A stretch of 32,202 nucleotides of DNA from Leptotrichia wadei (lineage in GTDB: Bacteria > Fusobacteriota > Fusobacteriia > Fusobacteriales > Leptotrichiaceae): NCBI RefSeq assembly GCF_007990545.2, contig NZ_AP019830.1, forward strand, positions 1-32,202. The letters are read 5' to 3'. Position numbers and translations under genes: made by a program. Below are positions 119-28,483 of this stretch, piece after piece (the first letter of the stretch is position 1; every line of letters starts with the position of its first letter). The notes below the pieces were generated by a model that was not told the DNA's origin, did no database searches, and saw only the letters and a list, made by a program, of their open reading frames with translations.

Positions 119-1231
119 ATGGCAATAAAAATTTTCGAATCAAGAGAAAATTTAAAAAATAAACTTCGAAATAGAGGATTAGAATTTGATTCTGATAAAC
201 TTGATAATGTCTTAAAAAAATATAATTATTTTGATTTGTTCAATGGATTTGAATCATTACTGCTAAGTTCATCACATCCTAAAAAATACATCAACATAAA
301 ATTAGAAGATTTTTTAAATTTATATGAATTTGATGAACTATTTACAGCAAGATTATTACGTTATTTAAATAGATTTGAAAAAAGTTTAAAATCTTCTATT
401 TCATATCATTTTACAAGCATGTACTGTAATACAATAAATGATACTATGCAATATACTAATAAAGAAAATTATATGAATCCAAAAGAAACAGATATTAATA
501 ACAGAAAATACTGTAGGTATTCAAATAATTATCCATTTGCAGGTTATCAAAATAAAGGGATCTATAATGAATTTGATAATTTTTGTTTGTTTAAGCCATA
601 TTTTTTAACTAATCTTGTTGATAAGAATGATCATATCAAGATAGATTTTTATACTGATACAAATTATAATGCGCCATCTAATGTTGCGATATATAGGGAT
701 ATTAATCATAATCTGAATTATAATGTAGCTGTTCCATTTTGGGTTGCTATTGAAACACTTACATTCGGAGAAACACTTAGAATATTACATTATTTAAAAG
801 ATGAAATAATGGAGAAAGTTTTAGAAGATTTTAAATTATCATTACCTAAAAGAACGATATTTTTAAATATGGTTGATTTTTTATTGTGTTTAAGAAATAG
901 TTGTGCACATAATTCTTTAGTAAATAGATTCAGAACACCCAATAAATATAAAGTAAATGCTTTCTTAGTTTCTACATTTAACTTAAATCCTAGTAATACT
1001 GATAATTCACAATATTCTATTTTAAAATTATTTGATGTTATGAAATTGTTGAGTTATTTTGAAAACATTTATGAGCTAAAAGAAATATTAGATGATATGA
1101 TTAGAAAGAATAGAGATTGTTTGGGATTTGATAAAGGTGATAAATTAAACAAAAAAATATTAAAAAGAATGGGATGTGAAGATTATTTACAATGGGAAGA
1201 ATTGTTTTTAAGAAAATTTGAATACATGTAA
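119..1231 (+). CDS. Abi_2/AbiF-family abortive-infection HEPN protein
   Basis: This 370-residue protein reads as an Abi_2 (AbiD/AbiF) family member: short polar N-terminus, then LFNGFESLLLSS, then helical LRYLNRFEKSLKSSISYHF near residues 80-98, a FWVAIETLTFGE motif in the middle, and LRNSCAHNSLVNRF near 258-271. The last contains R259-NSCA-H264, the RX4H signature of HEPN ribonucleases. Length fits the family. The start has an AAGGGA ribosome site about 12 nt upstream, slightly long. Abi_2 proteins are phage-defence or toxin-like proteins thought to cleave RNA when triggered. The gene stands alone; a small RNA with its own promoter follows 65 bp downstream, the arrangement known for AbiF genes with an associated RNA. 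Family call is fairly secure; substrate and trigger are not visible. Confidence 0.82.
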   Translation: MAIKIFESRENLKNKLRNRGLEFDSDKLDNVLKKYNYFDLFNGFESLLLSSSHPKKYINIKLEDFLNLYEFDELFTARLLRYLNRFEKSLKSSISYHFTSMYCNTINDTMQYTNKENYMNPKETDINNRKYCRYSNNYPFAGYQNKGIYNEFDNFCLFKPYFLTNLVDKNDHIKIDFYTDTNYNAPSNVAIYRDINHNLNYNVAVPFWVAIETLTFGETLRILHYLKDEIMEKVLEDFKLSLPKRTIFLNMVDFLLCLRNSCAHNSLVNRFRTPNKYKVNAFLVSTFNLNPSNTDNSQYSILKLFDVMKLLSYFENIYELKEILDDMIRKNRDCLGFDKGDKLNKKILKRMGCEDYLQWEELFLRKFEYM

Positions 1232-1260
1232 GTCATGATTTAAGAATATGTAAAAAATTC

Positions 1261-1289
1261 TTGACATAAATTACTAAATAAGTTAAAAT
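1261..1289 (+). promoter_or_regulatory. Sigma70-type promoter of the Abi-linked small RNA
   Basis: TTGACA at 1261-1266 and TAAAAT at 1284-1289 are separated by exactly 17 bp. It lies just after the Abi_2 stop codon and points into a non-coding stretch that ends in an intrinsic terminator, so it appears to drive a small RNA rather than a protein gene. Confidence 0.75.
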
Positions 1290-1295
1290 GATTTT

Positions 1296-1380
1296 AACAA
1301 ATGAAAGGCTCTTAAGAGCATTAAGTAATGAAATCATTACTTTCGAAGAAAATCTCCATGCAGAATGTATGGGGATTTTT
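1296..1380 (+). ncRNA. Candidate AbiF-associated small RNA (~85 nt)
   Basis: A consensus promoter and a strong intrinsic terminator bracket about 85 nt with no credible reading frame. Three structures are visible: the palindrome GCTCTTAAGAGC (1308-1319), a hairpin AAGTAATG/CATTACTT with an AAAT loop (1323-1342), and the terminator. Established knowledge: a conserved 'AbiF RNA' is found next to AbiF-type genes, and such pairs have been proposed as RNA-based toxin-antitoxins related to the ancestry of Cas13. Inference: this RNA is the partner or antitoxin of the HEPN protein upstream. I cannot test covariance against the published motif. Confidence 0.65.
1349..1380 (+). terminator. Intrinsic terminator of the Abi-linked sRNA
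   Basis: AAAATCTCCAT (1349-1359) pairs with ATGGGGATTTT (1369-1379), one G-U pair, nine-base loop, ending in a T run. It is flanked by an A tract and a U tract as expected of an intrinsic terminator. Confidence 0.75.
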
Positions 1381-1489
1381 AGGTTATTATATTTTTTTTT
1401 ATGGGAAAAATAAATTAAGTGGATTACCTTAAAAAATTTCAGTTAGTTAAAATTGGAATTTTTGAGTATTATTTTTCAAATGAAAAGGG

Positions 1490-1840
1490 CAGAAAAATGA
1501 TTCAGTTTTGCGAAGTGTAACGCTCGCATTACGAACTCATTTTTTTGCCTGAAAAGCCCTCGGCGTTTGAGAGCTCGGCAGTAATTTTTGAAAAAAATGA
1601 CAGGCGAGCCATTCATTTTTAATGAATGGAGGAGCTTTGCAAAGGGCTTCGCCCTCTTGCATTGCGACTGGCCGATACAAAAATTGAGCAGTCCCGAAAC
1701 TTACGATTTGCAAGAAAAAAAGAATACCCTAATGCAAGAGTATTCTTCTACAAAATCTACTATGGACGAGCTTTATCAAATACGAAAGAACTATGGAATT
1801 TATATGAGTAAGGAGATGGAGAGATAAAAACATCTCCCTT
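1490..1840. repeat. Hairpin-rich, less A+T-rich interspersed-repeat-like region
   Basis: Base composition changes abruptly here to a clearly G+C-richer stretch. It holds a 9-bp perfect hairpin CCATTCATT/AATGAATGG (1609-1629), a GC hairpin around GCAAAGGGC-TTC-GCCCT (about 1637-1658) and GGAGATG/CATCTCC (1812-1837). Overlapping open frames (TTG at 1588, ATG at 1626, up to 79 codons) have no ribosome site and an arginine/lysine-rich translation, so I do not call them genes. It resembles interspersed non-coding repeats seen between genes in fusobacterial genomes, from memory only. The last hairpin could also end the ariB transcript, though it lacks a U run. Confidence 0.4.
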
Positions 1841-1844
1841 CTCC

Positions 1845-2741
1845 TTACACAGATAGTCTTTCTTTAATATAAGAAATCAATCCTGGCGGAGTATCTGCAT
1901 ACGCAGACAACTCACAAATTATGTCTGATAAATTCAAATGTATTTTTCTCTTTTTTGAAAATAATTTTCTATTATGCTTTTTACCTGCATCTTGAAATAT
2001 ATTTCTAAATATAGGTGTTAGAGCTTGAGTGAAATATTTTCCTCTTATTTCATTTACTGGGTTTGTTTTTAATACTTCTATCGCATTGTTCATTTCCCAT
2101 TCAGTAGTCTCAATTGAATCTTTGACCAATCTCTCAAAATCACATATTTGATTTAGGTTTTTAACCACACTATATTCTTTTAAAGGTGTCATTTGTGGAA
2201 ACTTTCCACAATCTTTAGACTTTTTTATTTGCAAAGAGTACCATGCATTAGCATAAATAATTTCTTCAATGATTTCATTTCTTTTATTTACTATATGATC
2301 AAAAACAATTTTAAAATCTAAACTATCCTCTTCACTTTCTTCAGAAAATCCAACAACTCCTATCAACATCCTCTTTATAGCAGAATCTGTAAAATAGTAA
2401 TTCTCTATTGAGTATGAGGATGTAATGTATATACTATCAGGGATATCTTCATTATCATCATAATCACGATCTATAAAATATAAGTTCTTCTTATCATCTT
2501 GAATTGCAGTTTGGTTAGCAATCATTTCTTGAATGGTTAACACATTCATTTTACAATTACAATGAAAAACGCCATATTCCTTATCCCCAATATGTGATGA
2601 TACCCTGCTAACATAATACTTAAAATCATCCTTCCCTTCAAAAAATAAAAATATATCTTTTTTACTTTTTGAAGAAATATAACTTTGAAAAATAGACTCT
2701 ATACAGTCAGATTCGTTCTCCATAACATCCAACAAACTCAC
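1845..2741 (-). CDS. ariB: PARIS-like AriB: DUF4435/TOPRIM effector
   Basis: The protein is 298 residues with a GTG start chosen because AAGGAGGTG lies 9 nt upstream, on the end of the ATPase gene; the longer open frame to 2828 starts inside that gene without a ribosome site. Near the N-terminus FLFFEGKDDFKYY places E35 as the TOPRIM glutamate, and YFIDRDYDD gives D91 and D93, the DxD pair. This is the DUF4435 pattern. DUF4435 proteins paired with an AAA ATPase form PARIS, in which AriB is released to attack host RNA (reported target tRNA) when AriA senses a phage anti-restriction protein. The ATPase ends 4 nt before this start, so the two are translationally linked. Assignment to PARIS rather than a related ATPase/TOPRIM pair is inference. 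Confidence 0.68.
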   Translation of the reverse strand: MSLLDVMENESDCIESIFQSYISSKSKKDIFLFFEGKDDFKYYVSRVSSHIGDKEYGVFHCNCKMNVLTIQEMIANQTAIQDDKKNLYFIDRDYDDNEDIPDSIYITSSYSIENYYFTDSAIKRMLIGVVGFSEESEEDSLDFKIVFDHIVNKRNEIIEEIIYANAWYSLQIKKSKDCGKFPQMTPLKEYSVVKNLNQICDFERLVKDSIETTEWEMNNAIEVLKTNPVNEIRGKYFTQALTPIFRNIFQDAGKKHNRKLFSKKRKIHLNLSDIICELSAYADTPPGLISYIKERLSV

Positions 2742-2745
2742 AGAA

Positions 2746-4284
2746 CTACACCTCCTTATATTTATCAAGTTCAATAACAAATTTTCTGTATTCATTCTTG
2801 AATATAAATGGAGAATGTGTTGTCGCAATCATTAATCCGATTTTTTCAGAATTAAAAATATCTTTCAAAAATTCTTTCTGCCATTCTATGGATAAAGATA
2901 TTTCAGGTTCATCAATTATAAATATGCACGGTGTTACTACATCCAAATAAACTTTTGAAAAAATAGAAATTACTTGTTTTTCGCCTGATGATAAATCTTC
3001 AAAATCAATTTTTTTATCATTACAATCATAAACATTCATAGTCAAAAGTGTTTCGTCATATATTATTTTTTTACCAGATAGATATTTTGTGCACACATCT
3101 GAAAAATTTCTGAGCTTTGAGTCTAATGGCTTTTGTGCGTCATATATTTTAACCAATTTTTGTAAATAATATGATAAAAATTCTATATTAGGTATTGTTT
3201 TTCTTCTACTGGACTTATCTAAAAAGCTTTTTAGACTATCGATATTATCTATTCTTTCTTCACCAATTCTTTTTATTATTACATCTACTTTATGCAGGTC
3301 AATTGGATTGTATTCATCGAGATAGTAACTTACATTTTTCTTCAGTAGCTCGCTAATGATATTTGCATTCATTTTTATATATGCTGTATTTGCATCTTTT
3401 CTCATTTTATCCAACACACTGCTTATTCTATTTTTAACATCATTCATTCCAAATCCCATGTATTTTGGAGACAACTCATATCTATTGTACTCACCTCTAC
3501 GATTTAGAAAAACTTTATCCAAACCAACTTCTACTCTTCTATATGTTGGATAAAAAAGTATATCTTCCTCTAATACTTCTTTAATTTTATATAATGTCCT
3601 AGAAAGATCTTTATATTGCAGTTCTTTCAGTTCACGCAATATATACATAATTTTCTTATCTTTAATTAAGTCAATATCATTATTAAAAAACCTATAAGAT
3701 AACTCTTCAATAAACTCTAAATCAATATATTTTTTATGTGCAAAATCATTTCGTAGTTTCATGGAGTACTTTTTTGGCACATACATTGATAATTCTTCAA
3801 GCAATGCTTCTATTCTCTCAGAAGAATATCTATTATTGTTACTATTAACTTGGAAATATTGTTCTCTATCTATTTGATATGACTCTCCAGAAATATTAAC
3901 AATAACTTTTTTAAAATTAATATCCATTAGTGTGTTTTTATCACCTGTCAAAATAGCAACAATTATATTCAATATAGTTGTTTTTCCAATACCATTTTCA
4001 GATACCCAAATAGAAATATCATCTCTAAAATTTATTAAGTAATTATATTTTCCAAACAATCCCTCTATTTCTATACTTTCAAAAGATGTTAAATTATTAT
4101 GATTATTTAATTTTTTATTACGATTAATTCTATCTAAAATTGCCATGATATTTTTATTGTTTAGATCAATTTTATCCAAATCACTTATTGCATCAATATC
4201 ATTTGATAACAAATAGTCCAGTAATTGCTCATTTGTAAGTGCGTATTCTTTGGCTATTTCATCTATACTCCCATATCGTCTCAC
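2746..4284 (-). CDS. ariA: PARIS-like AriA: ABC/OLD-type AAA ATPase
   Basis: A 512-residue SMC/ABC-like ATPase: Walker A SENGIGKTT (G98-K101-T102), ABC signature LSSGEKQ, Walker B CIFIIDEPE and switch histidine ATTHSPF near the C-terminus. This is the AAA_15/AAA_21 layout of AriA, the sensor and scaffold of PARIS. The first ~65 residues (IDEIAKEYALTNEQLLDYLL) look like an additional small helical domain. The GTG start at 4284 follows directly after the TAA of the XRE gene and uses AAGGAGG inside its end. The TOPRIM partner follows 4 nt after its stop. Alternative: an OLD-family or Gabija-like defence ATPase, but the DUF4435 neighbour favours PARIS. Confidence 0.72.
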   Translation of the reverse strand: MRRYGSIDEIAKEYALTNEQLLDYLLSNDIDAISDLDKIDLNNKNIMAILDRINRNKKLNNHNNLTSFESIEIEGLFGKYNYLINFRDDISIWVSENGIGKTTILNIIVAILTGDKNTLMDINFKKVIVNISGESYQIDREQYFQVNSNNNRYSSERIEALLEELSMYVPKKYSMKLRNDFAHKKYIDLEFIEELSYRFFNNDIDLIKDKKIMYILRELKELQYKDLSRTLYKIKEVLEEDILFYPTYRRVEVGLDKVFLNRRGEYNRYELSPKYMGFGMNDVKNRISSVLDKMRKDANTAYIKMNANIISELLKKNVSYYLDEYNPIDLHKVDVIIKRIGEERIDNIDSLKSFLDKSSRRKTIPNIEFLSYYLQKLVKIYDAQKPLDSKLRNFSDVCTKYLSGKKIIYDETLLTMNVYDCNDKKIDFEDLSSGEKQVISIFSKVYLDVVTPCIFIIDEPEISLSIEWQKEFLKDIFNSEKIGLMIATTHSPFIFKNEYRKFVIELDKYKEV

Positions 4285-5188: not shown

Positions 5189-5248
5189 GTCAATAAATGA
5201 TAAAAAAAATTATAATAAGTAAATACTCGAAAATAAGAAGATTTATTT

Positions 5249-5276
5249 GTGTACTAAAACAGATGTTTTAATACAC
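5249..5276. other. Candidate resolvase crossover site (28 bp)
   Basis: GTGTACTAAAACA and TGTTTTAATACAC are 13-bp arms with one mismatch around a 2-bp centre, GA. The 28-bp size and 2-bp centre match the crossover site of small serine recombinases, and it lies 99 bp upstream of a serine resolvase gene. Confidence 0.5.
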
Positions 5277-5319
5277 GATTAAAACTATACTGAATTTAAG
5301 GGTATAATAAGCAAAATAA

Positions 5320-5352
5320 TGTACACTAAATTAAAACATATTTTAGTATACA
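5320..5352. other. Second candidate resolvase subsite, 33 bp
   Basis: TGTACACTAAA (5320-5330) and TTTAGTATACA (5342-5352) form an imperfect inverted repeat with the same half-site flavour (TGTAnnCTAAA) as the 28-bp site upstream but wider spacing, as in accessory res subsites. It lies just before the resolvase ribosome site, so the enzyme may repress its own gene. A TATAAT at 5303-5308 between the sites is the likely -10 box. Confidence 0.45.
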
Positions 5353-5374
5353 TTTTTGTAAAGGAGTTGTCTAA

Positions 5375-5992
5375 ATGAAATTTGGATATGCAAGAGTAAG
5401 CACGGCAAAGCAGGATTTGACAAGGCAGATAGCATCGCTTGAAAATGCTGGCTGTAATGAAGTTTATTGTGATATACAGAGCGGAAAAAATATGAAGAGG
5501 GATGAACTGCAGAAAATTTTATCAAAAATTCGTGAAAATGACACATTTGTTGTCACAGATATTGACAGGCTTGGGCGTAATTTTACAGAAGTTACTGAGC
5601 TTTATACAAAGCTTAAGGATATGAAAGTTAATATTGCTGTAATCAATCAGGAACTTTTAAATCATAATGTGAATGACAAAAAGGATGAAATTGTAAATGT
5701 TGTTGTAATTCCTCTTCTAATATATTTAGCTGAAAGGGAACGAAGCATTTTGATTGAAAGAATAAATGACGGAATTAAAAATATGCCACTTGGAAAATCT
5801 GGGAAAAGATACAGCAGGAAAACTGGAAATGTAATTGGACGGCCAGTTAAAGTCTTAAATCTTTCAAAAGAGGAGCAGGATATGTTAAAACGAGTACGAA
5901 ATAAAGAAATAAGCGTAAAAAGTTTTTGCAGGTTTATGCAGATAAGCAGATCCTCGTATTATAAATATTACAGGAACAGTTATCTTGATTAA
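5375..5992 (+). CDS. Small serine recombinase (resolvase/invertase)
   Basis: A 205-residue Tn3/Hin-type recombinase. The N-terminus MKFGYARVSTAKQDLTRQ carries the catalytic serine (S9), followed by FVVTDIDRLGRN, the conserved arginine motif of the catalytic domain. The C-terminus (ISVKSFCRFMQISRSSYYKYYR) is a helix-turn-helix. AAGGAG precedes the ATG at good spacing. Likely roles are resolving plasmid multimers or cointegrates, or inverting DNA. The two palindromes upstream are its probable targets. The element contains long inverted repeats (6588-10601), but those need not be its substrate. Confidence 0.9.
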   Translation: MKFGYARVSTAKQDLTRQIASLENAGCNEVYCDIQSGKNMKRDELQKILSKIRENDTFVVTDIDRLGRNFTEVTELYTKLKDMKVNIAVINQELLNHNVNDKKDEIVNVVVIPLLIYLAERERSILIERINDGIKNMPLGKSGKRYSRKTGNVIGRPVKVLNLSKEEQDMLKRVRNKEISVKSFCRFMQISRSSYYKYYRNSYLD

Positions 5993-6018: not shown

Positions 6019-6189
6019 ATGACTGATGAATTTTTTGAAGCTGAAAATGTAGATGATGAGGAAAACAATCTTGAATATGACAGGGATATTTTTGACATTG
6101 AAATTGAATTTGATGACGAAGTTGTTAAGAGAATTGAAAGAACTGAAACAACTAGAGAGTTTGAAAAGCTGATTGAAAATGAAGAGTAA
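6019..6189 (+). CDS. Very acidic 56-residue protein downstream of resolvase
   Basis: An ATG with AGGTGA upstream opens a 56-residue frame 27 bp after the resolvase stop, probably cotranscribed. I do not recognise it. About 24 of 56 residues are Asp/Glu and only six Lys/Arg, so net charge is near -18. The middle (DRDIFDIEIEFDDEVVKRIE) could form a strand plus helix. Such charge suits a protein that binds a basic partner, for example the recombinase, or a DNA mimic, but this is speculation. Confidence 0.6.
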   Translation: MTDEFFEAENVDDEENNLEYDRDIFDIEIEFDDEVVKRIERTETTREFEKLIENEE

Positions 6190-6260: not shown

Positions 6261-6289
6261 TTGATTTTTTTTAGTCAAAATGTTATAAT
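6261..6289 (+). promoter_or_regulatory. Promoter of the type I antitoxin RNA
   Basis: TTGATT (6261-6266) and TATAAT (6284-6289) are 17 bp apart. The expected start is near 6296 and leads into a short RNA ending at a terminator about 65 nt later. Confidence 0.75.
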
Positions 6290-6295
6290 TAACGC

Positions 6296-6359
6296 AACAG
6301 TACTGTAGGATAAAGACCATAAGTGTATAAAAAAAGGAGAGTTAGTGGCTCTCCTTTTT
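6296..6359 (+). ncRNA. Candidate type I antitoxin RNA (RNA II-like)
   Basis: A ~65-nt RNA from a consensus promoter to the terminator at 6331-6359. It contains CCATAAGTGTATAA (6317-6330). The same 14-mer recurs in direct orientation at 6439-6452, where on the opposite strand it lies exactly between the AGGAGG and the first ATG of the toxin mRNA. This RNA can therefore pair with the toxin mRNA initiation region and, through the shared terminator, with its 3' end. This is the geometry of RNA II in the pAD1 par system. No reading frame of note is present. Confidence 0.72.
6331..6359. terminator. Bidirectional terminator shared by toxin mRNA and antitoxin RNA
   Basis: AAAAAGGAGAG (6331-6341) pairs with CTCTCCTTTTT (6349-6359) around a seven-base loop. 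A T run follows the stem on both strands, so converging transcripts from both sides should stop here. Confidence 0.85.
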
Positions 6360-6362
6360 CCG

Positions 6363-6431
6363 TTACTTCCAAAATTCTTCGATTAAAATAATTGCTATCT
6401 GTAAAGCAATTATGATTAAGATTTTTACCAT
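6363..6431 (-). CDS. Candidate type I toxin: 22-residue hydrophobic peptide
   Basis: The peptide begins MVKILIII, continues as an almost pure Ile/Leu/Ala helix with one Gln, and ends EEFWK: a single membrane span with a charged tail, typical of type I toxins that damage the membrane. The strong AGGAGG (6453-6458) does not precede this ATG directly; it serves a five-codon leader frame (MDKLW) whose TGG-TAA overlaps the toxin ATG, so translation is probably coupled. It lacks the Pro-x-x-x-Gly of Fst, so the peptide family seems different although the locus has par/Fst architecture. The mRNA would run from about 6471 to 6331. Confidence 0.72.
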   Translation of the reverse strand: MVKILIIIALQIAIILIEEFWK

Positions 6432-6442
6432 AACTTATCCAT
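6425..6442 (-). CDS. Five-codon leader frame coupled to the type I toxin
   Basis: ATG at 6442 lies 10 nt after AGGAGG and reads M-D-K-L-W-stop. Its last codons overlap the toxin start in another frame (TTATGGTAA). It likely acts as a coupling leader, like mok in hok/sok: blocking this start by the antitoxin RNA would also block the toxin. Confidence 0.5.
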   Translation of the reverse strand: MDKLW

Positions 6443-6452
6443 AAGTGTATAA
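6439..6452. repeat. 14-bp direct repeat over the toxin translation start (partner at 6317-6330)
   Basis: CCATAAGTGTATAA is present identically at 6317-6330 and 6439-6452. Because the two RNAs converge, each repeat appears sense in one and antisense in the other, giving a 14-bp RNA-RNA contact that covers the toxin leader start. Confidence 0.85.
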
Positions 6453-6477
6453 CCTCCTTTCATCAAGGATTGTTCAG

Positions 6478-6506
6478 ATTATACCATTTTTTGGAAAGCC
6501 ATTCAA
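6478..6506 (-). promoter_or_regulatory. Promoter of the type I toxin mRNA
   Basis: On the minus strand TTGAAT (6506-6501) and TATAAT (6483-6478) are 17 bp apart, and TGG directly precedes the -10 box as in extended -10 promoters. The start near 6471 leaves a short leader before AGGAGG. Confidence 0.78.
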
Positions 6507-10690: not shown

Positions 10691-10769
10691 GAGTGTACAG
10701 AATTTTGTGTAAACTCAAAATATAATATATGGTACAGGATGGTAGTTTTATCATCCTGTTTTTAAATTC
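10691..10769. repeat. Second copy of the ~80-bp IS-end/terminator repeat
   Basis: Nearly identical to 7994-8074, with GAGTGTACAG in place of GAGTGTGTCCAG. It directly follows, and slightly overlaps, the end of the rep gene at 10762. Its hairpin can serve as the gene's transcription end. Confidence 0.8.
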
Positions 10770-11692
10770 CATACTTGCTAAACCAATTTTCAAAATGTCT
10801 TATACTTTCAAATTCAAAAACTTGCTTATACATATCATCCATATTCTGAACTCTTATTAGTACCGTTTCATCTTCCTTTATTCGCATAGATTCTATTGCT
10901 AAAATATTAAACATTTTTGTCATTCTATCGTACATTCTAACTTTTCTATGTAAAAAATAACTAATAAAACTGTCTTTATCTATTTTTTTATTTTCAATAC
11001 TTCTTTCTTTCCTTTGTTCTAAATCTTCTCTTAGAAATGTAAAAATAAATCCTGAAACACTTGGACGTCCTCTTGATTTTTTGTTATATAATTTTTTTAT
11101 TTTTAAGTTAAATCTATCTCCAAGTTCTTTTTGTATCGGTTTTAAAACCCATTTATCAATTTCTCCTATTTTATATTTTTCAGAAATATCAAGCATTTTT
11201 CTAAATTCTTCAATACTAACCCTCCAAATTCCAGTAGATTTAAATTGCTTCATTCTTCGATAAAATTCTTTTGCATAGCTTGATTTTAAACTTAAAAATT
11301 CTTTTAATTCAAATGCAGTAAAACTGACATTTAGTGCATTTAGAACCCAAGCAAATTCCTTATTAACGGCTATTTCAACTATTTTTTCTTCTATATCTAC
11401 TGAATATCGAGTAAATAACACAAATTTTATAAAACGTCTTTCATCTCCAACTTTTAATTTAATACTGATTAACTTATCATACGTACTTTCAAGATCTTTT
11501 ACAAAAGTTGCAGGTGTATTATCAGAATAGTTAATAAGTTTTTTTAATTTGTCAAAATGAAAAGTTATTACTTCTTCCTCTTTTTCTTTCATTCTGCTAC
11601 AAATTGCCATCAAAATATTAAGTTCATTTGAATTAAAATTTCTTAATCCGATACTATTAAGATTATTATGATATTTAACTATTATTATTCAT
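10762..11692 (-). pseudogene. Rep_3-type initiator with N-terminal frameshift
   Basis: Residues match the intact initiator at 16782-17786 throughout: EFYRRMKQFKSTGIWRVS, GRPSVSGFIFTF, and the end HFENWFSKYGI. The ATG at 11692, with GGGAG upstream, reads only M-N-N-N-S and stop. One base later another frame continues V-K-Y-H-N-N-L-N-S-I-G-L and then NFNSNELNILMAICSRM, matching the N-terminus of the paralogue (VKFNNQFNN...GFTSQELNLL). So a +1 or -2 shift sits near 11680. Translation may restart near 11613 to give ~283 residues lacking the first winged-helix segment. It is probably inactive or a sequencing error; iterons and promoter remain intact. Confidence 0.78.
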
Positions 11693-11758: not shown

Positions 11759-11850
11759 AATACTGAAAAACTACCTTTTATTTACTGAAAATCTCCGTTT
11801 TAATCTACTGAATTTCTACTTTTTATTTACTGAAAAACTACTTTTTTAAT
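11759..11850. repeat. Four iterons (22-23 bp) of origin 1
   Basis: TACTGAA recurs at 11761, 11783, 11806 and 11828, spacing 22, 23, 22. The unit is TACTGAAAAACTACCTTTTA with variation. A degenerate inverted half (AAAAGTAG...CTACTTTT) lies at about 11727-11754 over the promoter, a likely site of autorepression. Iterons upstream of a Rep_3 gene mark a theta-type origin. The rest of 11851-11935 is A+T-rich with AAAGGTATAA repeated twice. Confidence 0.82.
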
Positions 11851-16592: not shown

Positions 16593-16724
16593 AAAAAGGT
16601 CATTTTGGGAAAATAAAAGGGGCAAAAAGGGAGAATAAAAAGGACATTTTGGGAATTTAAAAGGTCAAAAAGGGAAATTAAAAAGGACGTTTTGGGAAAA
16701 TAAGAAGGTCAAAATTATTGAAAT
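16593..16724. repeat. Six iterons (21-22 bp) of origin 2, alternating types
   Basis: The GG of each unit falls at 16598, 16620, 16642, 16663, 16685 and 16707. Odd units read GGxCATTTTGGG or GGACGTTTTGGG, even units GGTCAAAAAGGG or similar, so the true period is 43-44 bp. They end at the rep promoter. Such direct repeats bind Rep_3 initiators. Confidence 0.85.
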
Positions 16725-16781: not shown

Positions 16782-17786
16782 ATGGCAAATGAAATTGTTA
16801 AGTTTAACAATCAGTTTAATAATGTTGCTTTGAAAGGGTTTACAAGTCAGGAACTGAATTTATTAATTACCATTGCTTCCAAATTAAAGGAAAAAGAGGG
16901 GGAAAAAGTTACTTTTGATTTCTTTGACTTGAAAAAATATATCAAGCTGAATAAAAATGAAACAACAAAAGAGTTTATAAAAAATGTAATGAACGTCAAC
17001 AAGAAATTATTAAAAATAAATTTTACATTCTACAATCAGAATAAAATAATCCAGTTTGCCTTATTCAAGTCTTTTGTAATTGATACGGATCTTCAGACTT
17101 TGGAAGTTTCCGTTAATGATGAATTTCTATTTTTGTTAAATGAATTGACTTCAAACTTTACACGCTTTGAACTGGAGGAATTTGTAAAATTCAAGTCTAC
17201 TTATACAAAAGAATTTTATCGTAGAATGAAGCAATTCAGGCATACTGGAGTCTGGAAAATTTCCATAGATGATTTTAATAGACTATTAGGAATTTCTGAA
17301 AGCTATAAAATATCAGATATTGATAAAAGGGTTTTTCAGCCTATTTTAAGCGAACTTGGAGAAAAATACAACTTGAAAATAATAAAAAAATATTCAAAAA
17401 AAACAGGGCGTGGGAGAAGCAGTGTCAGTGGATTTGAATTTCATTTTAAAAAAGAAAATAGGAGAGTTGTTGAACAGGAAAACCTTGAAGAGATTAAACA
17501 GGCAGGATTTGACATAGAAAAAGTTAGGGAGCATAAAATAAAAGAAAAAATACAGAAGGAAGAAAAAAATAGGATAAATAAAGTATCCGATTTTTATTTG
17601 TACAGAAAAGTTAAAATGTACGACAGTTTTTATGAGCAGTACAATTATCTTGAAATTCTGGCATTCAATCAAAAAAATGATAAATTAAACGTAAAAATCA
17701 GAAATGTAGATGATAGCTATGTTCAGGACTTTACTTTTGACAGTTTCAAAAATTTTGAAAACTGGTTTAGGAAATATGCTATCTAA
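16782..17786 (+). CDS. repB: Rep_3-family replication initiator
   Basis: A 334-residue initiator with tandem winged-helix character: GFTSQELNLLITIASKLKEK in domain 1, LEEFVKFKSTYTKEFYRRMK, QFRHTGVWKISIDDFNRLLG in the linker and helix-turn-helix of domain 2, then TGRGRSSVSGFEFHF. A long charged coil follows (about 225-270) before a C-terminal domain ending NFENWFRKYAI. ATG has GGGAGG upstream. Six iterons lie just before it. Rep_3 proteins bind iterons and melt the origin. It is the intact paralogue of the broken gene at 10762-11692. Confidence 0.9.
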   Translation: MANEIVKFNNQFNNVALKGFTSQELNLLITIASKLKEKEGEKVTFDFFDLKKYIKLNKNETTKEFIKNVMNVNKKLLKINFTFYNQNKIIQFALFKSFVIDTDLQTLEVSVNDEFLFLLNELTSNFTRFELEEFVKFKSTYTKEFYRRMKQFRHTGVWKISIDDFNRLLGISESYKISDIDKRVFQPILSELGEKYNLKIIKKYSKKTGRGRSSVSGFEFHFKKENRRVVEQENLEEIKQAGFDIEKVREHKIKEKIQKEEKNRINKVSDFYLYRKVKMYDSFYEQYNYLEILAFNQKNDKLNVKIRNVDDSYVQDFTFDSFKNFENWFRKYAI

Positions 17787-18062: not shown

Positions 18063-18809
18063 CTATTTTTTATTATTTTCAAGTAAATTATACAATTTTA
18101 TTAAATCCTCGTTCAAAGAATAGTAATAAGTATCTAGAAACCAATCTTCAAAATATACTTCATTAGAAAAATTTAAATATTTATGCAAATCTGAATAAAT
18201 CCTAAAATTAGAATTGAAATTAACTATAGATTCATACTCTTCTTTCTTAGAATAAATGTATTCTGCTACTTTTTCTATTTTTTTTAATTTATCTTGAAAA
18301 TCATCTATTTTTTCCATCTTTTTTTTCATTTTTTCATATTCATGCAAATCTAAATAATAATTAAAATCTTTTGATAAATATATTATTACTTCTGAATCAA
18401 TTATCTTTTTATTAAAAAATGTTGTTTCAGGAAGATCAGTAGTTGTAATTCTTGGAATAACTGATATACCCTTTGATAAATACATTTTTTTATCTAATTG
18501 TTTTACTAAATTTTTAATTTCATCACTATAATTTTTTAATTCATCTTCTTTTATAGTAAATTCTTTTATTTTATCTTTATCTATCAAAAGGGAGCAATTT
18601 GAAACCAAAAAATTTGATAAATTATATTCTTTAAGACATAAAGACAATTTTTGTTTCGTTTTTAATATTTTTATTTTTTCATCTTTCTCTATTTCCATAT
18701 TTAACCAATTTTTATCATCTCTTATATTATTATTTATTCTAGCTATTTCTTTACAATTTACACTGATACCAATCAGAAAAAAAATAATTATTTTTTTTAA
18801 ATAGTTCAT
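18063..18809 (-). CDS. Candidate immunity protein of the main CdiA
   Basis: A 248-residue protein with a signal-like N-terminus, MNYLKKIIIFFLIGISVNC, whose Cys19 could be lipidated although the box (SVNC) is weak. The rest is Lys/Glu-rich and helical, ending in a Tyr-rich segment. The ATG overlaps the cdiA stop by one base (TAATG), so production is coupled to the toxin. I recognise no family. By position it is the CdiI-type protector; an export signal suits a toxin with an envelope target. Confidence 0.55.
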   Translation of the reverse strand: MNYLKKIIIFFLIGISVNCKEIARINNNIRDDKNWLNMEIEKDEKIKILKTKQKLSLCLKEYNLSNFLVSNCSLLIDKDKIKEFTIKEDELKNYSDEIKNLVKQLDKKMYLSKGISVIPRITTTDLPETTFFNKKIIDSEVIIYLSKDFNYYLDLHEYEKMKKKMEKIDDFQDKLKKIEKVAEYIYSKKEEYESIVNFNSNFRIYSDLHKYLNFSNEVYFEDWFLDTYYYSLNEDLIKLYNLLENNKK

Positions 18810-21800
18810 TAGTATACACCTCTTTTTAAATTCTCTTTACCATGATTTATCATAGTTTTAACTTCAGTAGAGTTTGGAGTGGATGATTTTTCATATTTAC
18901 TACCTTTTATTCCCGTTGTGTTAATCTCTTCTTTATTAGTTGGATAATCAAAAAACGGAATATTCAAATTCACAGTAGTTTGTGAATTTTTTTTTGCTTT
19001 ATTCATTTTTTCTTCAAGTTCAATTCTAAAAAATTTGTAATAATCTGAATTTTTATCTTCTAATTTTTTTAATATTTCTGAATGTACAGTATCTATCTTA
19101 CCCTCTTTATTATAAGCTGTAAAATTTTTATTTTTCAAATTATTTATAATTTTATTATAGAAATCATCTAATGAATCTGCTAATACAGGTACTTCAAATT
19201 TTCTTTCCCCACTAAAATGAATTCCATTTCCATCTCTATATATTTGATAATGAGGTGTTAATACTTCGTTTATGCCCTCTTGATTATGGGAACCATGATT
19301 CAATTCGTGTGAATAAGCTACATAGGGTATAAATGTTTCGTCTTGATCTCTTACTTTAATTAATCCTGTCTTTTTATCAATTCCATCATACACTTTATAA
19401 GAAATGTTTTTATATTTGTCTATATGATAGTCTATGCCTAGTATTGAATCTGAACCTTTTCCTTCTATTCCATTGTCTATCACAGCATCCTTAGGTGATA
19501 CTGAATTCACATAGGCATTCCCCGGAGTATTTCTGACAAAAATTGTATTTTGATCCTTTATAACTCTTTCTATTAAATTATTTTCACTTGTATAGTTTTT
19601 TCCATCCCAAACTTTTGTATCAAATGTTTCATTTGAATTTTTAATTTCAGGTTCTCCATTCCAGGAATTTAAAATTTCTGCTTTATCTTCTCCTTTGTAC
19701 ATATAATTCTCATTAATAAAAGCTACCTTTCCAGTTATTGAATGTTTAGCTGAAGGACTTTTAACTTTTCCTTTTTCCCAAACTATTTGTGAAGATGATA
19801 ATTTACCATCATTTCCAGCATACCATACAAAATCGTCTTCATCTATTACAAGTGGTCTATTTGTTAATTTTTGAGTATTTGCATAAAAATCTTTAAAAAA
19901 TTGAGATTCCCATCTCATCTTATTAGCAATTTTATCAGTATCTTGAGCCACTATTCTTTCTAATGAAGCATTTTTTATTATATCCTGCGAAATTTGAGAA
20001 TTATTTTTTAAATCCTCAATTGTTACACTAATACCAAATTTTCTGCCTATTTCTTTAACTTTTTCATCATCATTCAAATTTTTATTATTTAAAATTTCTT
20101 TTAAATTATTTTCTGCATTTGAACTTTTTAAAATTGTCCCTCTGATTATTTCGGGTATATTTTTTTCTGCTGTTGCCAAATCAGAATTAGAAATACCATA
20201 TTTCTGAATTATTTCTTCTCCTATCTTTTTCTTGTTATCTCCGCTAGCATTTTTATAATCAGTTAGTTTATTCTGTAATTCACTTTGTAAATCTCCTGTA
20301 ACACTTTTAGCTAAAAGTTCTTTACCTTCTAAATCCAAACTTTTTATAGAATTTGGCAAGTTATAACTTTTAATCCCTAACTTATCTTGTATTTCTTTTT
20401 CTAATTTAGAAATTAAGTTCATATCTTTTCCTACTTCTATAAAATTATCTTCGGCAGAGTGAACAACTTCATTTTGTTTTGCACTTCTATATATTCTAAG
20501 ATAATTCGATATTTTTAACTTCTCTTCAATATCCTGATAACTAGCCAGCCTATCTTTTTGTTCCCTAGTCAATGTTTCACTGTTCCAGTTCAATCCTCCA
20601 CCAGTTCTAGCAAGATAACCCTTATCCATTGCCTTCTCTATAAATCCTGAAGCTCTTGCTTCTCCAAAGTTGGCTAGTAGTTCTGTATCTTTACCAGTTA
20701 CGTTATGTGTTAGTTCGTGTCCGAATACCGAATTTAAGTTAAAGTTGCTTACTGATGAAATATTGTCCGCATTTAGCCATATTGAGCCATCTTCAGCTAC
20801 AAATCCTGCTGCATTCATTTTATTTTTGGCATTAGGATCATCTTGCGATACTTCTGAGTTGACATAGAAGTTAATTTCTAATTTCTTGCCGTTCTTTGCG
20901 AAAATTTCTCCATATTTATCCTGCATTTCCTGTGCTATCTGCTCTTTTGTCTTTCCTTTAGTGTCAATATAGCCTAGATTTCTTACAGTTTCCTGAACCC
21001 TTTCAGTTCTTAGGAAGTCAAGGAAGCCATTTTTTTCTTTAGAGCCGATTGTATTGAAAGCCGCTTTTGCCACAGCACCAACCGCTTCAATTTCATCCTT
21101 GGCTTTCCCAATATCCTCTTTCAGTTTAGCTGGATTAGTAAGATATTCAATAGTCTGGCTCTCTACATTGATATTGGTACTGCTATGAGTGTCCCTCGTT
21201 ACTTCATTGGCTTTTCCTAAGTCCCTGTTTATTTGGCTTCCCTCAGCTCCTGCAATCTCAACATCTCCGACTACTGTATTTCTTGTGATTCCTTGCTTGT
21301 CCCTGCTGTCCTGATTAAATCCAACGTTTGTAATTCTCGGTTTTCCTGTTGAAATTCCAAGTGATCCGCCTGTTGTCTTCATTGTGTCGTGATTCTGAAT
21401 ATCTTTTCCAACATAGCTGTCAATCTTGAAAGTTGAGTTTCCTTCCTTTCCAACTACAGCTCCTGTATTTTCAAGCGTTCCGACGTGAAGACTACTTCCA
21501 TTTCCGACAATGAATGTGCTTTGGTTGTCTACGAATGCTCTATCTCCATTTGTTCTGCTTCCGTTTATGTTTACAGAGCTTGGCACTCCATTTGCACTTA
21601 TTCCAAGGCTCATTCCGCTTGAACTTCCAGTTGTGGTGCTTGTATTCTGTCTTGAAACAACTTCAACTTTTCCAATATTTCCAGTTAGTTTTCCACCTTC
21701 CTGATTAAAGCCATTTAATACCATTGAGCCTGTGTTGTTATGAACTTCATTTACATTCTTGAAGTTTCCGTTTGCATAGACAGTTTCAACTGTATTCTGG

Positions 21801-24800
21801 TTGCTTCTGCTTGTTGAAATGCTTCCGCCATTTCCAGTAGTCTGTATCTTATGTCCATAGCCAATTGTAGCTCCTGCATTTATTCCTCTGCTTGAACTGC
21901 TTGAGCTGTAGCTGTTATGAAGTTCCACGGCTTCCTTCTGAATGTTTGCCACGTTGTTGTAGATGAATGTTCCGCCCTGAGCCTGTGTTCCCTGATACGT
22001 TATGTTGTTTACATTATTGTAGGTAATGCTTGAATTTTCATTCATTGGCTTCAATGTAGTTACAGCCGCACCTTCAGTATGGGAGCTTGAACTGCTTTGT
22101 GAACGTGTAAATCCTGCATTTACTCCGATATTGGCGTAGAAGTTGCTGTTTGCCTGTGCGTCTCTTGCACCTTTTGCTCCTACGCTTCCGTTCACATAGT
22201 TTGTCTGTCTTGTCCCCTGATTGTCTGCTAATCCTTTAATTGTCCCAGTTACGGCGTTTACTGCTTCCATAGCTCCGCCTGCCGCATCTCCATTCTTGAC
22301 TTGGCTTACAGCACCTGCAGCCTGTTTAATTCTATCCTTAATTGGGCTGTTTATTCCTGCCGATATTGTAAATCCGCTGCTCTTACTTGAAGTATGCACA
22401 TCCCTTGTGTCAATTCTTGCACCATATTTTACATCGCCATTATTGATTTGGATATTTCCATATTCAAAGTTTGTGGCTGTAATTTCTGCACCCCTGTTTA
22501 ATACTGAGCCATCTCCAACTTGAAAGTTTGATTTTGCATTTATTGTACTCTTTTCATCATATGTACTTTGTGATTTTCCATATCCTGCTGAAATTGTGCC
22601 GTGGCTTACTCCACCAGTAAATCCTTTGCTCTTGTTCTTTTCGTAGTAGCTGTTGTGCAGTTCTCTTGAGTCCGTTGTAACTTTTCCGCCTACAAAGGTG
22701 TTTTCTCCAAGAACGATGTTGCTTCCTATCCCTTCAACATTTCCTGTAATTACAGCATTCTTTCCAAGCTGTAAATTACTTGCAACGTTTTCTTCCTGAT
22801 GAGATTTTATGTAATTGCTATTTGATGCAAAAGTGCTTTTATTACTTTGTCTTGATTCAATATCATAGGTGTTGATTACTGATTCAGCCCTTACATTTCC
22901 AACTGCAAGCCCTGTCGTGTCTTCAGCTATGAATGATGAGCCTCTTAGATTAAGGTTTCCAATTCTTCCTTCTGCTGAATTTGCAACTGCTCCACCGCCA
23001 AAATGTGTTGTTTCTGCATATTTTGAATAGTTGCTTCCACTTATTCCAAGCGTGCTCTGCCCTGATAATGATAATGCGCTTGTATTGAAGCTGTTTACAT
23101 CAAGTGCCAGATGATCAGTCTTTAGCATTCCGCCTACAGAGTTATAGCTGTCAGCCTTGATGAAAGTTGTACCTTTTGAAGTGATTCCACCAATTGAGGC
23201 TATTTCCTCACGCTGAGATTTATCGTACTCCCCATAGTTAAATCCAGTTGTTCTTTTTGTGGTATTGTTAATCACATTCCCCTTTTCAGAAATCAGGGCA
23301 ACCGCCTCTTCACCGTTAATCCGTCCGCCGATATTTTCAATATTTCCAACAGAACTTATATATGTCTTGTCTCCTGAAATTTCTGAAAGCAGGTTGTTAG
23401 TCGTCTCATTTCTTACAGTATTCGCTTCAACATAGGTAACTCCGCCATTACCCCATTTTGTACCATCATTTACAAAATCCTTGGTCTTGACATAAGTTCC
23501 GTTTATTCCGCCAACCCTGTTTCTAGTATCATCGCTTATGCTTTCCCTAGTCTTGCTGCTTAGATAAACTTGTGGAGCAAGGACTTCAACTCCATTTACA
23601 TTTTTGGTTACATACCAGACAATATCCTCGTTCAAGTTATTTATCTGATCTTGAGTCAGTTCTTGCCCTACTGTAAGTCCAAGCCTTGTACCTTCAGTTG
23701 CGGCATTGTCCATCATTGACTGAATTAGCTCCTGATTAGATTTTCCATTTATGAATGATGTTCCCAACTTTTCAGCTAATGATCTAGTTAATAACTGGTT
23801 TTCATAATATGCATCTCCAAGCCGTCTGGTTCTATCCCATATTTCGGAATAGCCAACTCTTGAAGTGAAGTAGTCGCTTCCAAAATATTGCCCAAGACTT
23901 ATGTATCTGCTTCTAGTTTCCAGCAAATATTTAGAACTTGGATTCATATTTGTTGTAAACATTGCGCTTGAAAGTATTGGATTTACGTCTATTCTTCCGG
24001 TATTTTTAATATCCTTAATCCCTGAATTGTTTCCTGCAATCTGAATTGCCCTGTCAAATCCATTGTTTACAGGATTATTTAAGTTTGTGCTTCCATTAAC
24101 CTGTGAATTTCCGTTAAAGCTGCTGTTTACTTTAGACAGCAAGGTATTTCCTGCAGCCTGAACCTGCCCGTTGGCAGAACTTGTCCCTTTATTCATTCCA
24201 ACTGAAGTTGAAGAAATCAAGGCTCTGCCAGTCGCTCCGCCATTATTTAATACTTTACCATTTCCAGCTTCTATTGGATTTTTTATGATATTTGGAGCAT
24301 TTACATTTACTACTGCCCCTTCAATGATGGAAGGCTGTCCGCTTTCATATCCGATGCCGCCATTCTCTAAGTATCTGCTGTAAGTTCCGTTTGCGGAGCT
24401 CCTTCTGCTCCCGTGTCTATATGTTAAATACAGTTTTTCCTGTCCATTCTTTAACTGGACTGCATTCCCTAACGTTACAGAATTTTCAAAATTTGTTGCA
24501 TTAATATTGACTAGGCCTCCGCCTGAAATTATGCTGTCCCTGTTTTTAAAATTACCTGAATTTATTGTAATATTTCCACTTGCTAAAACCTTACCATATT
24601 CAGTTGTTGCCCTGCTATCTATTTTTCCTGTCAAAGTATTTCCAGGTACTTCCGGAGTATTTGTTCTAGTAAGCTTTCTTCTCTGTCCCAATTTTGCTCT
24701 GGCAAGATCAGCATACTGAGAAAACAGCAGAGAATTTCCAGAATGTTTTGCAATCATGCTTTCAAGCCAGCTTCTCTGATGCCTTTTTACGCTGCCCCTG

Positions 24801-28411: not shown

Positions 28412-28483
28412 TGTTCATCTCCTTTCGATATTTTTACTGATTACAATTTGAAATTTTTTATTATTTCTATTTTGAGTTATTAT

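What the first reader, a model, noticed from the sequence alone, without database searches (positions are those of the whole stretch)
6261..6506. Compact par/Fst-like type I toxin-antitoxin locus with a new 22-residue membrane peptide
Two consensus promoters with 17-bp spacers face each other 190 bp apart, and both transcripts end at one bidirectional terminator (6331-6359). One encodes a hydrophobic peptide (MVKILIII...EEFWK). The other is non-coding and carries CCATAAGTGTATAA, whose identical direct repeat spans the space between the toxin's AGGAGG and first ATG. This is the logic of the Enterococcus pAD1 par locus, but the peptide lacks the Fst Pro-x-x-x-Gly motif and is read from a second start coupled to a five-codon leader. 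I know of no such locus described in Fusobacteriota.
Basis: partly seen in the sequence, partly recalled or inferred. Interest (0 to 1): 0.85.

Follow-up and report, generated by a model that had tools for sequence, protein, structure and literature searches.

The report
Par-like antisense toxin-antitoxin of Leptotrichia plasmids
A short stretch of an oral-bacterium plasmid carries what looks like a membrane-peptide toxin gene kept silent by a small antisense RNA, and its relatives show the two RNAs changing together to keep pairing, although this particular copy has a broken toxin gene.

Summary
The window is a whole 32-kb Leptotrichia plasmid contig. Its locus belongs to a family found in 13 of 98 Fusobacteriota genomes searched, all Leptotrichiaceae. 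In 18 copies analysed, two convergent TATAAT sites flank a hydrophobic short frame (broken in two), a shared terminator and an antisense copy of the start-codon repeat that changes together with it. Nine specificities were seen; over nine representatives no other pairing of 362,880 is as good as the true one. Mismatches are mostly G-U-compatible (11 against 2 reverse transitions at -9..+4, counted). The 'five-codon leader plus second start' is a one-base frameshift of this copy: five near-identical plasmid copies encode one 26-aa ORF. The peptide passes no Pfam or NCBIfam cut-off, lacks PxxxG and is not filed as Fst. A paralogous subfamily pairs at the 5' hairpin instead. At one chromosomal site the repeat is near-random between species (54%; shuffled baseline 43-48%) while the rest is 94-99% identical. 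Transcription and toxicity are untested. I found no earlier report in the papers I could search.

The parts
6478..6506 (-). toxin promoter: -35 TTGAAT (6501-6506), 17-nt spacer, -10 TATAAT (6478-6483)
   Evidence: TATAAT -10 in 18 of 18 copies analysed, -35 poor in several
6329..6471 (-). predicted toxin mRNA (about 143 nt)
   Evidence: ends inferred; same span hit by covariance model R1, which was not built from the window, E 4.1e-24
6455..6469 (-). 5' hairpin UCCUU-gauga-AAGGA over the Shine-Dalgarno
   Evidence: a 5-6 bp stem is possible in 18 of 18 copies and forms in the minimum-energy fold of 17 of 18; no shuffle control was made
6453..6461 (-). Shine-Dalgarno GAAAGGAGG
6439..6452 (-). 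toxin-side direct repeat TTATACACTTATGG covering the SD-to-start gap and the start codon
6425..6442 (-). five-codon ORF MDKLW*: N-terminus of the 26-aa toxin of relatives, cut off by a one-base frameshift
6363..6431 (-). 22-aa ORF MVKILIIIALQIAIILIEEFWK*: toxin core, reachable only by re-initiation at an overlapping ATG
6331..6359 (.). shared bidirectional terminator hairpin; second region where the two RNAs are complementary
   Evidence: not reported by the simple terminator scan
6317..6330 (+). antitoxin-side copy of the direct repeat (CCATAAGTGTATAA)
6296..6360 (+). predicted antitoxin RNA (about 64 nt, non-coding)
   Evidence: ends inferred
6261..6289 (+). antitoxin promoter: -35 TTGATT, 17-nt spacer, -10 TATAAT
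   Evidence: TATAAT in 18 of 18 copies analysed

Best explanation
A type I (antisense-RNA) toxin-antitoxin module with the regulatory logic of par/pAD1 but its own toxin family. The minus-strand RNA encodes a ~26-aa single-helix membrane peptide, MxxLWIKILIxIxLQIxIILIxEFWK in intact relatives. Its Shine-Dalgarno is held in a 5' hairpin. The ~64-nt plus-strand RNA is complementary to it at the shared terminator and at the repeat covering the SD-to-start region; pairing there blocks ribosome entry. If the plasmid is lost, the antisense RNA would decay first and the peptide would be made (plasmid addiction). In this window the toxin ORF is frameshifted; residual toxin could come only from re-initiation at an ATG overlapping the stop of a five-codon remnant. 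Shown by sequence: anatomy, conservation, covariation. Inferred: transcription, toxicity, RNA half-lives, addiction.
For: Homologs: a single-peptide search hit 12 of 60 genomes at E<=10, best foreign hit 1.7e-6. The profile A1 made from those hits finds 18 places at E<1e-5 in 12 of 98 phylum genomes (E-values of its own members are by construction). Model R1, built from 11 mRNAs, adds two copies in G019 (E 1.9e-5 and 0.0013) with the same anatomy. RNA pairing: cognate duplexes -17.5 to -27.7 kcal/mol over 18 copies. Over 9 representatives the cognate is the best partner 9/9 in both directions, and 1 of 362,880 permutations is as good, the true one. ATG-anchored cells -9..+4: 180 of 196 paired, 55 double changes; 0 of 5000 shuffles reach either. 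In the best local alignments all 16 transition differences are G-U-compatible. TATAAT on both sides in 18 of 18. SD hairpin in 17 of 18 minimum-energy folds. Hydropathy max15 2.79-3.21 in six peptides. Coding part lost while the antitoxin promoter, repeat and terminator stay: window, own chromosome, G005, G010.
Against: No RNA or growth data. The window's own ORF is broken. Promoter and terminator scans of the window alone are at chance, and -35 hexamers are poor in several copies. Some non-cognate duplexes are strong: -24.0 against a cognate of -27.2, and window toxin with the G022 plasmid antitoxin -20.0 against -22.7. Two types are less extreme against shuffles (L020 8 of 500, L019 2 of 500). 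In the fixed frame -9..+4 two transition cells go the wrong way (C:T in L013 and L014). ORF loss also happens to neutral genes; G010 has lost the toxin promoter and SD too. No known toxin shares the peptide sequence.
Confidence: 0.78

Rival explanations
1. The antisense RNA does silence the peptide by pairing at its start, but the peptide is a non-toxic regulatory or stress membrane protein rather than an addiction toxin.
For: Toxicity not tested; nine copies lie at one syntenic site beside a small cysteine-containing, metal-binding-like gene (the gene's nature is judged from its sequence, not from a family search), where addiction of a replicon is not needed.
Against: Copies on several small plasmids beside type II TA genes; repeated loss of the coding part with the antisense half retained; Ile/Leu-rich helix like type I toxins.
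Confidence: 0.15
2. For this window copy only (not exclusive with the best explanation of the family): it is a dead remnant. The frameshift abolishes toxin synthesis, and only the antitoxin RNA is still useful, if anything is.
For: 5 of 5 near-identical plasmid copies are intact; the chromosomal copy of the same genome is also frameshifted and has a weakened 5' hairpin.
Against: Promoters, repeats, SD and terminator are intact; an ATG overlapping the remnant's stop codon leaves a 22-aa core in frame, so re-initiation is possible.
Confidence: 0.6
3. The frameshift is a sequencing or assembly error and the real plasmid encodes the 26-aa ORF.
For: A single-base difference; both copies of this genome show one near the same stretch; the frameshifted allele was seen in no second record (searched viral contigs only).
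Against: By comparison with relatives the missing base is not in a homopolymer run. Only one assembly was available and no reads could be checked.
Confidence: 0.15
4. The repeats are DNA operators for a protein, not RNA-pairing sites.
For: Direct repeats near promoters are often operators.
Against: Nine different sequences, each repeated within its own locus (imperfectly in L019), with differences mostly in the direction that preserves G-U RNA pairs; always over the SD/start or the SD hairpin.
Confidence: 0.03

Closest known systems
par (RNA I/RNA II, Fst) of Enterococcus faecalis pAD1
   Same: Convergent promoters, shared bidirectional terminator, direct repeat over the toxin start, 5' stem-loop on the Shine-Dalgarno, plasmid and chromosomal copies with separate specificities (features as given in passages of PMC7472228)
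   Different: One repeat pair instead of DRa plus DRb; toxin without P/D/S/TxxxG and without a charged C-terminal tail; no PF13955 match; different phylum
Lpt of Lactobacillus rhamnosus plasmids (Fst-type)
   Same: Plasmid-borne short hydrophobic peptide with a par-like layout (passages of PMC6811638)
   Different: Lpt depends on Pro11 and its C-terminal tail for toxicity; neither is present here
Ldr/Rdl of enterobacteria
   Same: Small hydrophobic toxin with a Trp near the C-terminus (superfamily signature, PMC7472228 passages)
   Different: Described there as regulated more like hok/sok
msoT1/msoA1 of Microcystis
   Same: Type I TA outside the classical phyla (abstract and passages of PMC12390103)
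   Different: Different phylum; its sequence was not compared here

Membership tests
Fst/Ldr (par-type) toxins | Convergent promoters with a shared bidirectional terminator | tested here: met
   18 of 18 copies by sequence: TATAAT on both sides, hairpin with T-runs read; transcription not shown
Fst/Ldr (par-type) toxins | Direct repeats giving antisense pairing at the translation start | tested here: met
   one repeat pair rather than two
Fst/Ldr (par-type) toxins | 5' stem-loop sequestering the SD | tested here: met
   17 of 18 minimum-energy folds; prediction only
Fst/Ldr (par-type) toxins | YUNR U-turn in the toxin terminator loop | tested here: inconclusive
   window yes (CUAA); fully inside the predicted loop in 4 of 18, within two bases of the loop in 17 of 18; the motif is too short to be informative
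Fst/Ldr (par-type) toxins | P/D/S/TxxxG(C) motif in the membrane helix | tested here: not met
   0 of 18 peptides of both subfamilies and G019; the review says the majority of the family has it
[quoted passage not shown]
   9 of 11 subfamily-A peptides end in WK, with no tail; subfamily B and G019 peptides have no Trp there. The review notes that Fst-pAD1 itself lacks the Trp
Fst/Ldr (par-type) toxins | Match to the family profile PF13955 | tested here: not met
   no hit for five family peptides at E<=10; 0 of 98 genomes over cut-off (0 of 14 control genomes were over it either, so the profile's power is limited)
Type I toxin-antitoxin system | Small hydrophobic peptide encoded by the target mRNA | tested here: met
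   22-27 aa, GRAVY 1.32-1.85 in six peptides
Type I toxin-antitoxin system | Antisense RNA pairs with the toxin mRNA | tested here: met
   covariation; computational only
Type I toxin-antitoxin system | Peptide toxic when the RNA antitoxin is absent | not testable with these tools
   recurrent loss of the coding part is only indirect

The most novel reading that the evidence does not exclude
Leptotrichiaceae carry a type I toxin-antitoxin family, possibly evolved independently of Fst, in which the antisense recognition sequence is hypervariable. At one chromosomal site the repeat is replaced wholesale between species (54% identity, close to shuffled sequence) while hairpin, toxin coding DNA and terminator stay 94-99% identical, with a matching change in the antitoxin. 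This would be selected diversification of RNA specificity, for example to stop chromosomal antitoxins from silencing incoming plasmids' toxins or the reverse. G-U wobble pairs would be the stepping stones between specificities.
Probability: 0.3. Interest if true: 0.78.

Novelty: new variant of a known kind. Interest (0 to 1): 0.66.

Why it matters
A 2025 paper (PMC12390103, abstract and passages) states that type I systems were known only from Proteobacteria, Firmicutes and Tenericutes before its own cyanobacterial case; a family in Fusobacteriota would add a phylum. It would also add a toxin family that no profile library used here recognises, and a natural set of nine or more mostly orthogonal sense/antisense pairs on one scaffold. 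That lets one ask directly how cis-antisense specificity evolves and whether co-resident plasmid and chromosomal systems are selected not to cross-talk.

Tried and rejected
Searches that led nowhere: the search for related loci with A1 in viral contigs and genome contigs confirmed nothing, and tblastn on plasmids found no match. One search missed plasmids that one search shows to carry the gene, so I take these nulls as uninformative (probably low-complexity filtering of an Ile/Leu-rich peptide). A DNA pattern for SD plus EFWK-stop gave 8 stretches in genome contigs: 2 Leptotrichia with the gene and 6 chance matches without a fitting ORF; and 0 in viral contigs. Exact patterns of the frameshifted and intact alleles found nothing in viral contigs. 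No search reached Bacilli or other phyla with the profile, so a wider spread is not excluded.

Weak hits in other families of the phylum: R1 hits in G088, G066, G053 and G090 and the A1/A3 hit in G072 were opened and rejected for lack of the architecture. G053 has an SD with a short hydrophobic ORF that I left unresolved. A4's G039 hit (E 0.005) and the other weak A1 hits (E 0.02 to 1) were not opened.

The RNAalifold structure behind model R1 pairs the SD with the terminator and is probably an alignment artefact; R1 was used only as a search model, and one search ran with stricter filters. Rfam: 0 matches over the whole window. I rejected the 22-aa peptide plus leader as an ancestral design. 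The T1TAdb paper and two papers I know as Coray 2017 and Fozo 2010 (identifiers recalled) are not held, so earlier reports there cannot be excluded.

Rows dropped: A2 uses 11 of the 13 mRNAs printed (near-duplicates left out). The permutation test uses 9 representatives, one per repeat type, picked by me from 18 copies; the counts use the 14 distinct rows of those 18. L017 (G010, toxin 5' half replaced), the G005 chromosomal copy and a decayed fourth G022 copy (L107) were left out of the 18-copy pairing and promoter analyses.

Mended after checking: the U-turn count (one search replaces a reading); the hairpin count (17 of 18 folds); the two reverse transitions; the circularity of profile E-values.

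Full report
Setting. The window is all of contig C2 (32,202 b) of a two-contig genome. The first 25,000 bases match 7 PLSDB plasmid records, all Leptotrichia. The locus at 6261-6506 is bracketed by DUF6290/ParE-type toxin-antitoxin pairs on both sides. On the four named plasmids opened, no listed feature covers it, and it lies between RelE-type and PemK/MazF-type genes; the PLSDB gene table is incomplete, so an annotation in the original records is not excluded.

Observation. In isolation they are not striking: promoter-like sites are at chance level and no terminator passes the scan, and other 14-mer direct repeats exist in the window. The case rests on homologs.

The family. A 22-aa query found matches at E<=10 in 12 of 60 genomes, the own genome included. 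The profile A1, built from those peptides, gave 18 places at E<1e-5 in 12 of 98 Fusobacteriota genomes: 10 of 13 of the window's genus, plus G022 and G026. E-values of the profile's own members are by construction. Covariance model R1 added two divergent copies in G019 that were not in its alignment (E 1.9e-5 and 0.0013). Their anatomy fits: SD, hydrophobic ORF, repeat with one T/C difference each, terminator; cognate duplexes are -23.7 and -22.3 against cross-pairings of -17.3 and -8.2. Profiles A3 and A4 contain the G019 peptides, so their hits on them are no independent confirmation. All 13 positive genomes are among the 33 of the window's family (Leptotrichiaceae by the named plasmid records); 20 of those 33 had none. 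In the 65 other genomes nothing convincing was found: best E 0.007 (A1), 0.004 (A3), 0.005 (A4) and 0.03 (R1). Genomes outside the phylum were not searched with these profiles.

What the toxin is. The window copy is one base shorter, which stops the frame after five codons. The 'second start' is an ATG lying out of frame inside Leu-Trp codons of the intact genes. The same genome's chromosomal copy is also frameshifted. G005's copy at the same site has lost the hydrophobic core, and G010's has its 5' half replaced, with toxin promoter and SD gone; in all four the antitoxin promoter, repeat and terminator remain. Of nine copies at the syntenic site, six are intact and three broken. A fourth G022 copy is decayed. 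Repeated loss of the coding part is what one expects of a harmful product, but with so few cases it is suggestive only.

How it works. The predicted toxin mRNA starts with a hairpin pairing UCCUU (or a variant) with the Shine-Dalgarno AAGGA: possible in 18 of 18 copies, present in 17 of 18 minimum-energy folds (SD unpaired probability 0.16-0.55); no shuffle control was made for it. The antisense RNA carries a copy of the region between SD and start codon. Across 18 copies there are nine different sequences for this region, each matched within its own locus, imperfectly in L019. Among nine representatives cognate duplexes average -24.0 kcal/mol against -10.6 for non-cognate ones (the strongest non-cognate is -24.0); the cognate partner is best in 9 of 9 rows and columns, and no other permutation of 362,880 is as good. 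In the best local alignments of the repeat pairs there are 23 differences: 16 transitions, all of the kind that keeps a G-U pair (about 7 independent changes by my count), and 7 transversions. In the fixed frame -9..+4, 180 of 196 cells pair with 55 double changes, against means of 124 and 18 in shuffles and 0 of 5000 reaching either; counted there, transitions are 11 G-U-compatible against 2 reverse (L013 and L014). These counts include related sequences, so they are not independent events; the switch between types at one site is the stronger argument.

Orthogonality. In genomes with more than one copy the cross-pairings are mostly weak: in G003 -9.0 and -10.1 against -20.5 and -27.0; in G008 -6.6 and -9.2 against -17.5 and -27.7; in the window's genome -7.8 and -9.7 against -22.7 and -27.0. 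In G022, with three copies, cross-pairings reach -18.7 against cognates of -22.1 to -26.9. These energies leave out the terminators, which resemble each other between copies. This agrees with what PMC7472228 (passages) reports for the two E. faecalis par loci.

Hypervariable specificity. Seven copies share flanking DNA at one site. Between specificity types their 5' hairpin is 99%, coding DNA 94% and terminator 95% identical on average, but the repeat is 54% (44-62%); shuffled repeats give 43%, or 48% with the ATG kept, under the same scoring. L015 and L016 have identical coding DNA after codon 3 and different repeats. G005's broken copy is a mosaic: toxin-side repeat of one type, antitoxin-side copy of another, although that combination still gives -24.0 in the matrix (L016 by L015).

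Second subfamily. Profile A3, which holds none of them, drew in a paralog (MRVKETIKILLLILLELLRYLIEKFL) in six Leptotrichia genomes at E 3e-4 to 0.009 (read). Its antitoxin repeat matches the 5' hairpin and SD (CTCCGAATGTTAG against CTCCAAATGTTAG) rather than the start codon. Cognate energies are -21.5 to -28.6 in five of six copies, at or beyond nearly all shuffles (0 or 1 of 300); copies of the same repeat type pair as well with each other. The sixth (G005, L113) has lost its SD and promoter and is little better than shuffles (17 of 300).

Comparison with what is known. The regulatory anatomy is that of par/pAD1. The peptide is not filed as an Fst: no P/D/S/TxxxG in 18 of 18 peptides, no charged tail, no profile match. 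Pfam, NCBIfam and PHROGs gave only weak hits (ASFV_J13L E 7.2; Prli42 E 0.03, under its cut-off; two PHROGs E 0.24 and 0.62) and the PDB chains none at E<=10. Shared layout with an unrelated peptide could be deep divergence or convergence; 26 residues cannot decide.

Literature. PMC12390103 (abstract and passages) lists three phyla plus its own cyanobacterial case. The search pairing 'type I toxin-antitoxin' with Fusobacteri listed 20 papers, of which two were opened at passages (PMC4147584; PMC10326533, which calls a RelB protein type I). The Leptotrichia search gave 16 papers, 15 listed; passages of PMC3535699 mention one unnamed toxin-antitoxin cassette in Sneathia. Further searches, whose longer lists were seen in part, and passages of the TADB 3.0 paper (no Fusobacteri in its text) showed no such locus. 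Key surveys are not held, so a first in the phylum is provisional.

Verdict. A real, conserved, par-like type I toxin-antitoxin family of Leptotrichiaceae, new in toxin and apparently in host group, with strong computational evidence of antisense pairing and no experimental test of toxicity. The window copy itself is probably a disabled member.

Noticed in passing
L111, L112, L114, L115, L116 (five Leptotrichia genomes; decayed copy L113): Second paralogous peptide/antisense locus whose antitoxin repeat targets the 5' hairpin and SD instead of the start codon.
   Followed up: partly
L108 (G005 chromosome): Mosaic copy with toxin-side and antitoxin-side repeats of different types and the toxin core deleted.
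   Followed up: partly
window 6331-6359 versus L010-L012, L027, L029: The terminator loop appears inverted between the window copy and its plasmid relatives.
   Followed up: no
window 5240-5980: Segment with a resolvase that does not align with the four annotated relatives; no ORF of 60 aa or more besides the resolvase and one opposite-strand frame is listed there, although relatives have PemK/MazF next to the locus.
   Followed up: partly
window 6019-6189: 56-aa acidic ORF beside the locus, no Pfam family; it lies where relatives have an unnamed small ORF next to PemK/MazF.
   Followed up: no
window 10762-11613 and 16782-17786: Two Rep3 replication initiators on one plasmid, each with short direct repeats nearby (11761-11841, 16603-16703) that may be iterons.
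   Followed up: no
window 18809-30292: 3200-aa ORF in a region that matches hemagglutinin genes of related plasmids, with a ShlB-type transporter: probably two-partner secretion on a small plasmid.
   Followed up: no
window 119-4284: Abi_2 gene, and a DUF4435 plus AAA ATPase pair, a possible defence module.
   Followed up: no
L105 (G053): SD plus 21-codon hydrophobic ORF between terminator-like hairpins in another fusobacterial genome, weak model hit (E 0.06); might be an unrelated small membrane peptide.
   Followed up: no
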